From positions 1 through 35,698 of the forward strand of contig CADALT010000026.1 in assembly GCA_902788785.1 (NCBI GenBank): 35,698 nucleotides of DNA. The letters run 5' to 3'. The DNA comes from an uncultured Ruminococcus sp. Lineage in GTDB: Bacteria; Bacillota; Clostridia; Oscillospirales; Ruminococcaceae. Under the pieces are notes generated by a model. The model was not told the DNA's origin. It saw only the letters and a program-made list of their open reading frames with translations, and searched no databases. A program made the position numbers and the translations under genes. This document shows positions 3,010 through 12,684 of the stretch, in pieces (the first letter of the stretch is position 1; each line of letters begins with the position of its first letter).

Positions 3010-4239
3010 TCACTTAACTCCGCAGTCCTCCAGAAGGCTTTTCTCGATGATATCCTTGCCGTTCGCCCTTACCGAAGCCTTTGCTGTCATCACGCCATAC
3101 TCCATCTCGCCTATAAGTATGGGGACTTTCCTGCCGAAATGCTCCTCGGTAACGTGCTCTTCATGAAGCTCCTGCACCGCTGTGATAGCATCGGCATACA
3201 CAGCTTTCATCAGACCTGCATCATCACGCCTGCCTATCCCTTTTGCCTTTGCCCATGCCGTCACGAATTCGGCATCAAGACCATCAGCTTCTTCATCCTT
3301 CCAGCAGCATATGTTCCAGCGTTCACGGCTGCCCGACTCTTTGAAATAACTCTCGGTATTATACGCAAATGAAATATACGCTGTCATTCCCTCACAGGCA
3401 CCAAGCTCACAGATCAGCTGCATGGCGTAAACATCATCGTCCTCTATTGTACCGATGACCCCTTTTGCCATATCCTTTATGGCTTCTATCAGTTCTCGGT
3501 CGCTGCCTTCAAAGGACTCGGTTTCATACACTCCGCCAACTCCGCAGTCCTCCAAAAGGCTTTTCTCTATGATATCCTTGCCGTTCGCCTTTACAGACCA
3601 TATTGCCGTAGTATCACCAAGCTCTGTCTCGCCTATAAGTATGGGGACTTTTCTGCCGAAATGCTCCTCGGTAACGTGCTCTTCATGAAGCTCCTGCACC
3701 GCCTTGATGGCATCGGCATACACAGCTTTCATCAGACCCTCGTCATCATACTCATCAAAACCCTTAGCCTTTGCCCATGCAGCCACGAACCCTGAATCCA
3801 GACCGTCCATTCCATCATCCTTCCAGCAGCATATGTTCCAGCGGTCAGAGCTGCCCGATTTTTTGAAATAACTCTCGGTATTATAAGCAAAACTGATATA
3901 AGCCGAAAGTTCCTCATCAGCACCAAGCTCACAGATCAGCTGCATGGCATAAACATCATCGTCCTCTATTGTACCGATGACCCCTTTTGCCATATCCTTT
4001 ATAGCTTCTATCAGCTCTCGGTCGGTACCGTCGGAAATATACTCGTCTGTTTCATCATTTGATGCGGAGCTTGCATTCATGGCAGCAGCAGTTTTCATAA
4101 GCTCCCCGATCTGTTCGTCACCTGCGCCAACTCTCTTGAAATATTCCTCCACCGTTTCACCGGGGCGCATTGCATACTTTTCCATATCACCGAGATCGGG
4201 TGCGCCTGTCTTCTTTTTCAGATCATCAAAAATGCCCAT
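3010..4239 (-). CDS. Tandem-duplicated DUF4303-like protein
   Basis: A cytoplasmic 409-aa protein without signal peptide or membrane segment. Residues 1-70 are a unique N-terminal part. Two copies of a roughly 162-residue domain follow, at 73-234 and 247-408, offset by 174. Shared blocks include DRELIEAIKDMAKG, AYISFAYNTESYFK, RWNICCWKD and ELHEEHVTEEHFGRKVPIL, and DNA identity between copies is high, so the duplication is recent or gene-converted. The NTE...W arrangement resembles DUF4303, a family of unknown function; this assignment is from memory and tentative. AGGAGG lies 9 bases before the ATG. It has its own promoter (4292-4320) and terminator. I cannot give a function. Confidence 0.75.
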   Translation of the reverse strand: MGIFDDLKKKTGAPDLGDMEKYAMRPGETVEEYFKRVGAGDEQIGELMKTAAAMNASSASNDETDEYISDGTDRELIEAIKDMAKGVIGTIEDDDVYAMQLICELGADEELSAYISFAYNTESYFKKSGSSDRWNICCWKDDGMDGLDSGFVAAWAKAKGFDEYDDEGLMKAVYADAIKAVQELHEEHVTEEHFGRKVPILIGETELGDTTAIWSVKANGKDIIEKSLLEDCGVGGVYETESFEGSDRELIEAIKDMAKGVIGTIEDDDVYAMQLICELGACEGMTAYISFAYNTESYFKESGSRERWNICCWKDEEADGLDAEFVTAWAKAKGIGRRDDAGLMKAVYADAITAVQELHEEHVTEEHFGRKVPILIGEMEYGVMTAKASVRANGKDIIEKSLLEDCGVK

Positions 4240-9289: not shown

Positions 9290-9901
9290 TCACTTTATAA
9301 CAAGCCCCATGAGCCCTGCCAGCTGTGCTGCCTGGTCGTAGCTGACTATCAGCCCTTTAAGCTCCGCAAGCTCACGGGATACGACTATGCCCGAAATATC
9401 GCAGTCTCTGAGGTCAACGCCCCTGAGAGAAGCCCTGAAAAGCTCTGCCCTGATAAGCTTGCAGTCCTTGAGCTCGGTGCGGCTCAATCTCACCTGCGAA
9501 AGCAGAGCGTTCGACATATCACAGCTGCGCAGTGTACAGCCCTCGAACGTACTCTCCGAGAACAGACCGTAGGCAAAATGCGTGCCCTTTATCAGCGTGT
9601 TTTTCAAAGTGCTGCGGCTCAGGTCACTTCCGCCGCCTTTGCAGCCCGTGACCGTGCAGTCCTTCCAGTAGCTTTCACGCAGAGGGATATTGGAGAAGTC
9701 GCACTTATCGAAAGTACAGCCATAGAAAGCTGCTCTCTCCATATCACAGCTGATAAAGCGGCAGCCCACGAACCTCACATCCTGAAAGCTCATGCCGCTC
9801 ATATCCAGCGATGCCGCTGTCTCACGCTCATACACCGCATTCTTTATCTCGTCATCGCCCTCACGGGCAAGCTGTATATCCTCAGCAAGACTATTGCCCA
9901 T
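9290..9901 (-). CDS. Pentapeptide-repeat protein
   Basis: A 203-aa protein made mostly of A(D/N)LXX-type pentapeptides (about residues 33-185; for example LRGVD LRDCD, AELFR ASLRG), expected to form a right-handed quadrilateral beta-helix. Many repeats carry Cys. There is no signal peptide or membrane segment, so it is cytoplasmic. The start at 9901 is preferred because TGAGGTG lies 6 bases upstream; reading from 9943 would overlap the metallophosphoesterase. It follows that gene by 8 bases, so the two are translated from one message. Binding partners of such proteins vary, and no function can be assigned. Confidence 0.85.
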   Translation of the reverse strand: MGNSLAEDIQLAREGDDEIKNAVYERETAASLDMSGMSFQDVRFVGCRFISCDMERAAFYGCTFDKCDFSNIPLRESYWKDCTVTGCKGGGSDLSRSTLKNTLIKGTHFAYGLFSESTFEGCTLRSCDMSNALLSQVRLSRTELKDCKLIRAELFRASLRGVDLRDCDISGIVVSRELAELKGLIVSYDQAAQLAGLMGLVIK

Positions 9902-9909
9902 AGCACACC

Positions 9910-10611
9910 TCACACATAGAATTCTTCCATCGTATCCAGGCATATGCAGGCAAGTCTGCCGCCCATGCAGGCACCGCAGTCGATACAGATATTATTGTGA
10001 CTGTGGTATATCTCCGCCTTGCCCGATATCAGCAGAGTAGGCGTATGCCCCGTTACCACGAATATGCTCTCGTCCTCAAAATACTGCCTGTCAGGGTCGC
10101 TCCTGTCCATTATCAGTTCCTTGATGGTATACTCGCTTATCTTCTTGCCGAGCCTGAAATTGCCAAGCCCTGCATGAACGAGTATGAACACCCTGTCGCC
10201 CACTTCTGCCGCTTCATACATGGCAAAGTCCGCAAGATAGTCGAGCACATCACGTTTCTGTTCGTCCGAAAGCCTGCGATAACCCTCCATAGTCGTTCTG
10301 CCGCCGTCATGCATCCAGTCGAGGAACTCATTCATGGTATCCACATCGAGATGTGTTTCGGCATTTTCCTCGGTTATCTCCACATCAAGCTTTTTCAGCA
10401 TATCCAGCGCCAGAAAATCATGATTGCCGCAGATGGGGTATACATTTTCACGGTTCATCATATCCAGTAATATCTCCATCGGCTGAGGTCCACGGTCGAC
10501 CACATCGCCCACCACATACAGGGTGTCCTCCGCCGAAAGAGCTATCTTTTCGAGCATACGGCAGTATTTATCATACTCGCCGTGGATATCGCTCATCACA
10601 TATGTAGGCAT
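9910..10611 (-). CDS. Metallophosphoesterase, PrpA-type serine/threonine phosphatase-like
   Basis: A 233-aa cytoplasmic calcineurin-like phosphoesterase. The dimetal motifs are complete: D8-I-H10-G, G35-D36-V-V-D39-R-G, and G62-N63-H64-D65. Later metal histidines fit VHAGLG and TGHTPT. The compact size and GDVVDRGP motif match the PrpA/PP2A-like bacterial protein phosphatases, but diadenosine-tetraphosphate hydrolase-like activity is also possible. AAGGAGG lies 6 bases before the ATG. It sits 53 bases after the ExbD-like accessory lipoprotein with no strong promoter or terminator between (only a bulged hairpin at about 10627-10657), so it may be part of that operon. Substrate unknown. Confidence 0.9.
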   Translation of the reverse strand: MPTYVMSDIHGEYDKYCRMLEKIALSAEDTLYVVGDVVDRGPQPMEILLDMMNRENVYPICGNHDFLALDMLKKLDVEITEENAETHLDVDTMNEFLDWMHDGGRTTMEGYRRLSDEQKRDVLDYLADFAMYEAAEVGDRVFILVHAGLGNFRLGKKISEYTIKELIMDRSDPDRQYFEDESIFVVTGHTPTLLISGKAEIYHSHNNICIDCGACMGGRLACICLDTMEEFYV

Positions 10612-10664
10612 TTTGCCTCCTTAACTATCCCGAAGGAAATTTTATTTCATTTCCCGGGTACACA

Positions 10665-11129
10665 TCATTCGGTATAAGTAATATTCTTCTCCTGCAAATA
10701 AGAGGTCAGATCCTTATAGGCATTCTGCGATGCGTTATCGTCCTTTATAGTGACCACTGCGCCATCGTTATCGTCTATCAGCTTCTTGACCTCATCGAGG
10801 GTCATGGTGGTGTTATCCACGATGTACTTATCCGCCGAAACGGTTATATCAAGCTTATCCGCCTTTTTATTGGTGTTCTGCTCATCGGTCATATCATCGC
10901 CATTGCCCGTATCGGAGGTTTCCTCCTCGGACTCGGTCCTGACCTTAGCCTCTGCTGTCGTGGTCGTGCTTTCGGAAGTTTCTTCCGCCGACTCGGTCTG
11001 TGCAGAGGTTTTCTCGGTATCATTGCCAAAGGGCAGTTCGTAACCGAATATACTGCATCCTGCCATCATAGCTGCTATCATCAGCGCCGATGTGAATGCA
11101 AGCGCTTTCTTCAAATTATCATTTCTCAC
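10665..11129 (-). CDS. Lipoprotein with ExbD/TolR-like extracytoplasmic domain (accessory 2)
   Basis: A 154-aa lipoprotein. The signal peptide ends in the lipobox MMAGC, with lipidated C25. A Ser/Thr/Glu-rich linker (about 35-90) spans away from the membrane. The C-terminal domain (92-153) has the strand-helix-strand-helix order of the ExbD/TolR periplasmic domain: DITVSADKYIVDN, a TLDEVKKLI helix, AVVTIKDDNASQNAY and a last helix. It is plainly paralogous to the neighbouring accessory (NASQxAYxxLTxxLxEKxIxY shared). GTG at 11129 has AAGGAG 8 bases upstream; ATG at 11138 abuts that site and is rejected. It overlaps the upstream gene by 11 bases. Exact function is unknown. Confidence 0.75.
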   Translation of the reverse strand: MRNDNLKKALAFTSALMIAAMMAGCSIFGYELPFGNDTEKTSAQTESAEETSESTTTTAEAKVRTESEEETSDTGNGDDMTDEQNTNKKADKLDITVSADKYIVDNTTMTLDEVKKLIDDNDGAVVTIKDDNASQNAYKDLTSYLQEKNITYTE

Positions 11130-11508
11130 TTTCCGCATCTCCTTCGATATATTTTATGCTTTTTTCATCAAGTGCCGCCGTCAGTTCACGGTACGCTTTC
11201 TGTGAAGCGTTCCTGTCCGCTATCCTGACTGCCGCTATCTCATCATGTTCCTCCATCGCAGCTATTATAGCTTCGATGTCGGTCTTCTCATTATTATATA
11301 TATAGTCATTGCCGTCAATAGTGACTTCCATATATTCAAGCTGTTCGGTCTCGGGGGCAATGGACGCTGATGCTTCCACCGAAGGCACAAGACCCTTATC
11401 ACCTGTGCCAGAACCACGGTGCGTCAGGTAATACACGCCTATCGCCACCACAGCTGCCACCGCCAGCACCACGATGATGCCGATCACGGCACTGCCTTTT
11501 CTGTTCAT
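11119..11508 (-). CDS. Membrane-anchored ExbD/TolR-like domain protein (accessory 1)
   Basis: A 129-aa protein with one membrane segment (about 6-28) and the rest outside. Residues 58-122 form an ExbD-like domain: EVTIDGNDYIYNN, helix, AAVRIADRNASQKAY, helix. The segment VRIADRNA closely resembles the ExbD family strand that precedes the last helix. It lacks the Asp-bearing transmembrane helix that couples ion flow in real ExbD, since its helix has no acidic residue. ATG at 11508 is chosen because AGGAG sits 9 bases upstream; ATG at 11517 directly follows that site. It is 14 bases downstream of the ExbD-like gene and overlaps the next one. Likely role: a partner of the motor, by inference. 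Confidence 0.75.
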   Translation of the reverse strand: MNRKGSAVIGIIVVLAVAAVVAIGVYYLTHRGSGTGDKGLVPSVEASASIAPETEQLEYMEVTIDGNDYIYNNEKTDIEAIIAAMEEHDEIAAVRIADRNASQKAYRELTAALDEKSIKYIEGDAESEK

Positions 11509-11522
11509 GCAGTTCATCTCCT

Positions 11523-12140
11523 TTACGAACCCGAAGGATCCGATCCATTTAATTCTAAAGAATAATCAGTTTCGGAGCAATAGAAATGCGGATACTCACG
11601 CCTTACCTTTTCAAGAGCCAATGATGTTATCCTATATGCTTTCCTGGAACCTGCAGCAGCCCCGTCAAAATGCAATTCACAAAGAACCGTCATATCATTA
11701 TCCACTCCGCCGTTCTCTTTAAGCATGGACTTTATATCCTCAGCAAGAGCGTTTTCATTATCGACTTTAAATTCGTCAATTTCCTCATCGCCCTTTTTTA
11801 TATGCATAGTCCAGCTGCCGCCTTCTTCTTTCATAATGAACTTATAATTCTGTCCTCGGGCAAATTCTATCATAGCCGAAACGTCCTGCGCACGGCGGTC
11901 ATCGGCATCTTCAAGGGCTTTCATCTCTTCCTCAGCCTGCTTTTGGAGCGCTTCTGCCTGCGCCAGCTTTTCCTCGGCTTGTTCCGTCATGGTCTCAGCC
12001 TGTGCCATGGCTTGTTTGGTCTTCGTGCCTGTATCCATGGTGGAGAACATTATGAAAAAGAATATTATTATCAGCGTGACATCTAAAAGCGAGGTGAAGT
12101 CCACGAAGATATCAGCCTTTTTCAGTCCCGTCCTTTTCAT
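11523..12140 (-). CDS. ExbD/TolR/MotB-like proton-channel subunit with coiled coil
   Basis: A 205-aa membrane protein. Its N-terminus, IFVDFTSLLDVTLIIIFFF, matches the ExbD/TolR pattern in which one membrane Asp (here D20) accepts the proton. After the helix (16-35), a 40-residue Ala/Glu/Gln coiled coil (about 40-82, AQAEALQKQAEEEMK) replaces the usual short linker. A folded extracytoplasmic domain follows to about 200. The start overlaps the ExbB-like stop by 4 bases (ATGA), which indicates translational coupling and an obligate pair. No TonB, TolA, OmpA-like peptidoglycan domain or flagellar gene is nearby, so what the motor drives is unknown. Confidence 0.82.
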   Translation of the reverse strand: MKRTGLKKADIFVDFTSLLDVTLIIIFFFIMFSTMDTGTKTKQAMAQAETMTEQAEEKLAQAEALQKQAEEEMKALEDADDRRAQDVSAMIEFARGQNYKFIMKEEGGSWTMHIKKGDEEIDEFKVDNENALAEDIKSMLKENGGVDNDMTVLCELHFDGAAAGSRKAYRITSLALEKVRREYPHFYCSETDYSLELNGSDPSGS

Positions 12141-12631
12141 TTTCTCAGTCCGACTTTCTTATCCCTGCGCTGTTCTTCGGCTATCTCATCCAGCCTGTCC
12201 AGGTCATCTTCTACCTCGGGTTCGATGAAAGCCGCATTGAATATCTTGAACACCGCTGCAAATATTATGCCCCATGCGGTAGAGGTCAGTGCTGTGAAGA
12301 AATTGCTCTTTACCGCATCAAGGCTTTCCGTCATCTGTGAGAAATCCACGCTGCCAACATTTATCAGCGATACCACGGTGCCGAACATACCCAGCAGCGG
12401 ATATAGCGTGATAGATGCCGCAAATATGGAATATGCCGTATGGAGCTCCCTGCGCATATCGTCAACCCAATCGGGATTATCGGGCATTTTCTCCAGCTTC
12501 TTTTTGAGCTTGCTTTTAGTGCGCATTATTCTCCTGAGAGACCATATAGTGAGCAAAAGACCAAGAAAAACTATCCAGTCGGTCTTGAAGATATTCAGTA
12601 TCATCTGCTTGAAAACATTTACGAGCGCCAT
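12137..12631 (-). CDS. MotA/TolQ/ExbB-family proton-channel subunit
   Basis: A 164-aa protein with the three-helix ExbB/TolQ layout: TM1 about 17-35, a basic cytoplasmic loop, TM2 about 66-92 with the family motif LLGMFGTVVSLI, TM3 about 110-136 with ALTSTAWGIIFA, matching ExbB/TolQ (LLGLLGTV; ALxxTAxGL). The C-terminal tail is charged and cytoplasmic. ATG at 12631 has GGGGGTG upstream; a longer reading to 12667 is ruled out because the -10 box at 12656-12661 lies within it. It is first in an operon with the ExbD-like gene and two accessories. Proton-motive-force driven torque or force is the family role; its use here is unknown. Confidence 0.85.
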   Translation of the reverse strand: MALVNVFKQMILNIFKTDWIVFLGLLLTIWSLRRIMRTKSKLKKKLEKMPDNPDWVDDMRRELHTAYSIFAASITLYPLLGMFGTVVSLINVGSVDFSQMTESLDAVKSNFFTALTSTAWGIIFAAVFKIFNAAFIEPEVEDDLDRLDEIAEEQRRDKKVGLRK

Positions 12632-12655
12632 TGCGCAGATCACCCCCTGACAAAC

Positions 12656-12684
12656 AGTATACCACATAAAACCTCATTTTTCAA
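12656..12684 (-). promoter_or_regulatory. Promoter of the ExbB/ExbD-like operon
   Basis: Minus strand: TTGAAA (12679-12684), 17-base spacer, TATACT (12656-12661) preceded by TGG, an extended -10. It leaves a leader of only about 18 bases before the ATG at 12631. Confidence 0.85.

What the first reader, a model, noticed from the sequence alone, without database searches (positions are those of the whole stretch)
9290..12684. ExbB/ExbD-like motor with two paired accessory proteins in a Gram-positive cell
An ExbB-like (12137-12631) and an ExbD-like gene (11523-12140) overlap by 4 bases. They are followed by two small proteins, one TM-anchored and one lipid-anchored, that share a second ExbD-like extracytoplasmic domain (NASQxAYxxLTxxLxEKxIxY) but lack the membrane Asp. 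ExbB/ExbD normally energises TonB or TolA across an outer membrane, which this organism is unlikely to have. No TonB, OmpA-like domain or nuclease is present, so TonB, Tol and Zorya systems do not fit. The ExbD-like subunit also has an unusual coiled coil. A phosphoesterase and a pentapeptide protein may belong to the same unit. This could be an undescribed force-transducing system acting on the wall or membrane.
Basis: partly seen in the sequence, partly recalled or inferred. Interest (0 to 1): 0.78.

Follow-up and report, generated by a model that had tools for sequence, protein, structure and literature searches.

The report
ExbB/ExbD-like motor module in Clostridia
A small ion-driven membrane motor of a type known from bacteria with an outer membrane, plus a third protein of matching fold, is kept intact by selection in Ruminococcus and scattered relatives in which no outer-membrane marker was found; what it pushes or pulls on is unknown.

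Summary
ExbB-like (12137-12631) and ExbD-like (11523-12140) genes overlap by 4 bases; two small exported proteins, A1 and A2, follow. Motor residues are intact: ExbD membrane Asp in 56/56, both ExbB pore Thr in 29/29. A1's outer domain folds like ExbD/TolR (seven best PDB rows) and lacks the membrane Asp; sequence alone does not show this. The conserved unit has three genes, not four or six: ExbB-ExbD-Acc in order in 26/26 genus loci and 77/80 named Clostridia loci (9 loci shared). A second Acc occurs in 7/80. The window's phosphoesterase and pentapeptide genes do not travel with it. dN/dS is 0.02-0.14. TonB, OmpA and Omp85 models match 0/29 genus genomes. A patatin gene follows Acc in 24/26 genus loci. 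Four genomes keep Acc+patatin at a site without ExbBD, and two of them show no ExbB or ExbD match, so Acc is not only a motor subunit. Best reading: a working ExbBD-type motor with an ExbD-fold partner acting on wall or outer leaflet of single-membrane Clostridia; contact, rotation and target are inferred. New variant of a known kind.

The parts
12137..12631 (-). ExbB/TolQ/MotA-like subunit, 164 aa, three hydrophobic stretches (11-36, 66-87, 112-140), very small cytoplasmic part; Thr85 and Thr118 invariant in relatives
   Evidence: Pfam MotA_ExbB 44.4 bits; A6 invariants; Thr148/Thr181 of E. coli ExbB align to them; hydropathy
11523..12140 (-). ExbD/TolR-like subunit, 205 aa: TM helix with invariant Asp20, continued as a helical stalk to residue 94, then a bbb-a-b-a-b head
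11119..11517 (-). Accessory A1 (Acc family): TM helix, linker, ExbD/TolR-fold outer domain, no membrane Asp
10665..11138 (-). Accessory A2 (Acc family, second copy): lipobox-like MAGC, long linker, same domain by alignment (not modelled)
9910..10611 (-). Calcineurin-type phosphoesterase, ApaH/PrpE-like; downstream neighbour, not conserved with the module
9290..9943 (-). Pentapeptide-repeat protein; downstream neighbour, not conserved with the module

Best explanation
A working 5:2-type, ion-driven ExbB-ExbD motor adapted to a single-membrane envelope. Five ExbB surround two ExbD helices; ion flow past ExbD Asp20 and ExbB Thr85/Thr118 turns or pulls the ExbD pair (inferred from homology). The ExbD helix runs on to residue 94, a stalk of roughly 57 residues beyond the membrane (my estimate; about 8.5 nm if fully helical), which holds the ExbD heads away from the membrane. 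Acc, membrane- or lipid-anchored by a flexible linker, presents a second ExbD/TolR-fold domain in the same space and pairs with the ExbD heads or with a wall or lipid target, in the place that TonB/TolA hold in outer-membrane bacteria. In Ruminococcus the unit is joined to a patatin phospholipase and a phosphoesterase, so upkeep of membrane or wall lipids is the most likely job. Shown: gene order and spread, conserved motor residues, predicted fold of Acc, purifying selection, absence of three outer-membrane markers in the genus. Inferred: stoichiometry, rotation, Acc-motor contact, target.
Confidence: 0.5

Rival explanations
1. Acc is first of all the partner of the patatin phospholipase (an anchored sensor or adaptor for it), and the ExbBD motor is an optional driver of that pair.
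For: Acc + patatin without ExbBD at the site in the window's own genome (L119), R. albus 8 (L253), G019 (L254) and G220 (L137); genus Acc beside patatin carry a conserved K-rich N-terminal tail.
Against: Outside the genus most Acc lie beside ExbD with no patatin: a patatin relative shows in 9 of the 98 loci clustered, eight of them genus-type loci; Acc is missing in 1 of the 78 named loci where it could be seen.
Confidence: 0.2
2. Acc is a FliL-like regulator or plug that rings or gates the motor and does not transmit force (FliL comparison recalled).
For: Single-TM protein encoded with the motor, no Asp in the TM core; optional second copy, some with lipobox-like ends.
Against: The fold matched best is ExbD/TolR; otherwise untested.
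Confidence: 0.15
3. A Zorya-like anti-phage motor.
For: ExbB shows weak ZorA profile similarity. Three loci have defence genes nearby: L216 SngA/SngB, L180 ThsB, L136 DndH/PtuA-like. PADLOC families at E<=1e-10: 28 in 121 neighbours against 10 in 121 control genes, though several rows fall on one protein and not all were traced.
Against: No ZorC/D/E hit among the six genes; ExbB lacks the long cytoplasmic tail and ExbD the peptidoglycan-binding domain described for ZorAB (passages of PMC11890865; OmpA 0/29). Listed neighbours look mostly like housekeeping genes. Fixed place next to patatin in 24 of 26 genus loci; no viral-contig relative.
Confidence: 0.05
4. A decayed leftover of a Ton system, as suggested for monoderm bacteria in PMC12204202.
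For: That paper (passages) calls Ton systems in monoderms likely non-functional.
Against: Conserved motor residues, dN/dS 0.02-0.14, conserved third gene. The paper's Ton sets may be other loci.
Confidence: 0.03

Closest known systems
ExbB-ExbD of the Ton system (E. coli)
   Same: MotA_ExbB profile, pore Thr pair, TM Asp, ExbD-type outer fold (clearest in Acc)
   Different: No TonB_C, OmpA or Omp85 in the genus; ExbD helix runs on as a stalk; an extra ExbD-fold protein without Asp
TolQ-TolR-TolA
   Different: No Pal-type OmpA protein in the genus; the third gene, Acc, has an ExbD/TolR-type head
AglRQS gliding motor; paired tolR-like genes in PVC bacteria
   Same: One TolQ/MotA-like gene with more than one ExbD/TolR-like gene (passages)
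   Different: AglQ and AglS are both predicted to carry the membrane Asp (PMC9389320 passage); Acc has none
Zorya ZorA-ZorB
   Same: 5:2-type motor genes
   Different: No peptidoglycan-binding OmpA-like domain, no long ZorA tail, no ZorC/D/E
GldL-GldM
   Same: Motor with a long extracytoplasmic shaft (PMC9389320 passage)
   Different: GldM is described there with four domains and an 18 nm shaft; not compared by sequence here

Membership tests
ExbBD-type 5:2 motor | MotA_ExbB profile above cut-off | tested here: met
   44.4 bits against 22.9
ExbBD-type 5:2 motor | Two pore Thr of ExbB conserved | tested here: met
   T85, T118 invariant in 29 rows, aligned to Thr148/Thr181
ExbBD-type 5:2 motor | ExbD/TolR profile and membrane Asp | tested here: inconclusive
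   Asp in 56/56; Pfam ExbD 24.2 bits, cut-off 25.4; head fold ambiguous
ExbBD-type 5:2 motor | Five-to-two assembly and ion conduction | not testable with these tools
   no complex prediction or assay
ExbD/TolR (for Acc) | ExbD/TolR extracytoplasmic fold | tested here: met
ExbD/TolR (for Acc) | Membrane Asp in the TM helix | tested here: not met
   7 of 62 TM cores hold a charged residue, each K or R
ExbD/TolR (for Acc) | Sequence profile similarity | tested here: inconclusive
   hhalign E 0.034, probability 1.5%; no Pfam family; no ExbD in PDB profile search
Ton system | TonB C-terminal domain in the genome | tested here: not met
   0 of 29 genus genomes
Tol-Pal system | OmpA-like (Pal) protein in the genome | tested here: not met
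   0 of 29
Zorya | ZorB with OmpA-like domain and ZorC/D or ZorE | tested here: not met
   PADLOC on six genes finds only weak ZorA for ExbB; OmpA 0 of 29
AglRQS | Second TolR-like protein with membrane Asp | tested here: not met

The most novel reading that the evidence does not exclude
Single-membrane Clostridia run an ExbBD-type proton motor as a force machine on the cell wall or on the outer leaflet of their only membrane, with Acc as an ExbD-derived third subunit in the place of TonB/TolA, tied to phospholipid turnover by patatin: a Tol-like system without an outer membrane.
Probability: 0.35. Interest if true: 0.82.

Novelty: new variant of a known kind. Interest (0 to 1): 0.62.

Why it matters
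A 2022 review (PMC9389320, passage) says ExbBD is considered a Gram-negative property, notes ExbB-family proteins annotated in two Gram-positives, and leaves open whether Ton orthologues work there. A 2025 study (PMC12204202, passages) calls Ton systems in monoderms likely non-functional. Here an intact ExbB-ExbD pair under purifying selection, with its own third gene family, is near universal in Ruminococcus (ExbB in 27 of 29) and scattered through other Clostridia. It makes the question 'what does an ExbBD motor do without an outer membrane?' testable in cultured species such as R. albus and R. flavefaciens.

Tried and rejected
Six-gene unit: phosphoesterase and pentapeptide are not next to the module in the relatives shown. 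Stalk and linker reaching the same height: no length correlation. Defence island: 28 PADLOC families in 121 neighbours (121 of 191 neighbour clusters; proteins over 900 aa and others left out for size) against 10 in 121 of 156 control genes from 20 stretches; several rows fall on one protein, so I read no clear enrichment, but not every hit was traced; three loci with defence neighbours are told. Mobile element: pattern scans of viral contigs found no relative; plasmids gave two Paracoccus ExbB only. Accessory-ExbD homology by sequence: weak or none. ExbD head fold: ambiguous; a Foldseek run on it was not accepted. ExbBD remnants before orphan Acc: best E 0.011 (L254 was read on the wrong side there and redone, best E 1.2). 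In one search, 54 of 57 ExbB-profile genomes have 262-592 aa frames, look like MotA, and were left out of the module count, 45 of 67 matching genomes had only weaker matches (E above 1e-10) and were left out. Papers: six searches listed nothing on such a module in Ruminococcus or other monoderm Clostridia; I saw 20 of 50, 25 of 8,553, 16 of 16, 15 of 503, 20 of 21 and 8 of 9 listed papers, and passages of PMC12204202, PMC12505986, PMC12215075, PMC9389320, PMC12905483, PMC11890865 and PMC6069880; no paper was read whole, and most subscription journals are not held.

Full report
What is there. On the minus strand of the window lie, in order, an ExbB-like gene (12137-12631, possible earlier start at 12667), an ExbD-like gene (11523-12140, 4-base overlap), and two small exported proteins, A1 (11119-11517) and A2 (10665-11138, 20-base overlap with A1). 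An ApaH/PrpE-like phosphoesterase and a pentapeptide-repeat protein follow. ExbB passes the MotA_ExbB model; ExbD falls just under its Pfam cut-off; A1 and A2 reach no Pfam cut-off. One MotA_ExbB protein was found in the window's own genome, which is 91% complete.

How widely it is kept. 27 of 29 genus genomes (own included) hold an ExbB relative. In all 26 other loci, which I fetched, ExbB, ExbD and an accessory ('Acc') follow each other with gaps of at most 31 bases. Acc is the next gene after ExbD in 77 of 80 (in L157 after a stretch of short repeats); two of the rest end at the contig end and one (L177) shows no Acc. Nine genus loci and one family locus are also among the 80, so genus and named sets hold 97 different loci, 94 of them with the order. 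In a family sample, 22 of 198 genomes have an Acc match at E below 1e-10 (4 of the genus, 18 others); the other 45 of 67 matching genomes had weaker matches only and were left out. I opened the 18: 16 are contiguous triads, one (L130) has ExbD-Acc with ExbB 16 kb away, one (L137) is Acc without ExbBD; two further ExbB hits (L115, L138) show a variant with two weaker Acc copies. In a class sample of 343, G000, G270 and G531 have ExbB and Acc within 1 kb on one strand (the latter two loci were not opened); in a phylum sample of 398 only the own genome matches at E<=1e-12. So the module belongs, as far as sampled, to Clostridia: near universal in Ruminococcus, patchy elsewhere. Viral contigs gave no relative; plasmids two Paracoccus ExbB.

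One accessory or two. One is the rule; a tandem second Acc occurs in 7 of 80 named loci, among them R. albus 8, the nearest relative of the window (L140, the same DNA as L029). On an Acc-domain tree the second copies cluster (3 changes of label, shuffled mean 7.6, 0 of 500 as low), which points to an old pair rather than fresh copies. But the tree has 70 columns for 70 rows, many open forks, and the window's A2 lies in no well-supported set.

Is it alive? In eight close pairs of relatives, some sharing a locus, dN/dS for ExbB, ExbD and Acc is 0.022-0.136 in 23 of 24 estimates (one undefined, some dS above 1; for two pairs only part of ExbB was used). Window against R. albus 8 is too diverged for a sound estimate. 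This speaks against decay. TonB_C, OmpA and Omp85 match 0 of 29 genus genomes each; other outer-membrane genes were not searched.

Context. In 24 of 26 genus loci a patatin-like phospholipase follows Acc within 147 bases, and a calcineurin-type phosphoesterase follows on the same strand in 24 of 26 (one representative of each scanned by Pfam). In seven loci of one clade a gene of the LPG_synthase_TM type lies before ExbB (one member scanned). Other neighbours look like mixed housekeeping genes. Against expectation, Acc and patatin also occur together without ExbBD at the site in the window's own genome (contig C22, L119), R. albus 8 (L253), G019 (L254) and G220 (L137). The first two have their ExbBD elsewhere; G019 has no ExbB or ExbD match, and G220 has no ExbD match and is not among the ExbB matches. 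So Acc either has a second role with patatin or was kept after loss of the motor.

What it most likely is. An ExbBD-type motor retuned for a single membrane: motor parts shown by conserved residues, a long stalk and an ExbD-fold partner shown by models, function at wall or membrane lipids inferred from neighbours only. Zorya, Ton, Tol-Pal and AglRQS each fail a tested defining feature; 'works like an ExbBD motor' is not touched by that. In print, PMC9389320 (passages) leaves ExbB orthologues in Gram-positives open; PMC12204202 (passages) calls Ton systems of monoderms likely non-functional; the passages seen of PMC12505986 group non-flagellar motors without naming this module; the one Gram-positive passage of the 2026 review PMC12905483 is about PomAB. 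Searches listed no description of it.

Noticed in passing
L119:9446-9988 (window's own genome, contig C22): Third Acc, of the genus type, with patatin, phosphoesterase and M20 peptidase but no ExbBD at the site; Acc-patatin likewise in R. albus 8 (L253), G019 (L254), G220 (L137).
   Followed up: partly
L115:8373-9382 and L138:8803-9809: Variant module: the first accessory has two hydrophobic stretches (by eye), a second one follows, then a 322-355 aa exported-looking protein (tRNA_anti-like Pfam hit in L115).
   Followed up: partly
L130 (G102): ExbD-Acc pair and ExbB lie about 16 kb apart on opposite strands, the only split case among loci opened.
   Followed up: no
window 10612-10664: Imperfect inverted repeat between A2 and the phosphoesterase gene, read by eye; no T-run, not reported by the terminator scan.
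   Followed up: no
window 3010-4239: 409-aa ORF made of two closely similar halves, seen in its translation.
   Followed up: no
L216:2156-4977: SngA/SngB (Shango) defence pair directly behind one module.
   Followed up: partly
L157 after 6169: Short tandem repeats between ExbD and Acc, seen in the translated frames.
   Followed up: no
L136:4686-15940 (G108): Module flanked by PtuA-like ATPase, DUF4007 and DndH-like helicase genes; this genome holds a second, variant module (L115).
   Followed up: partly
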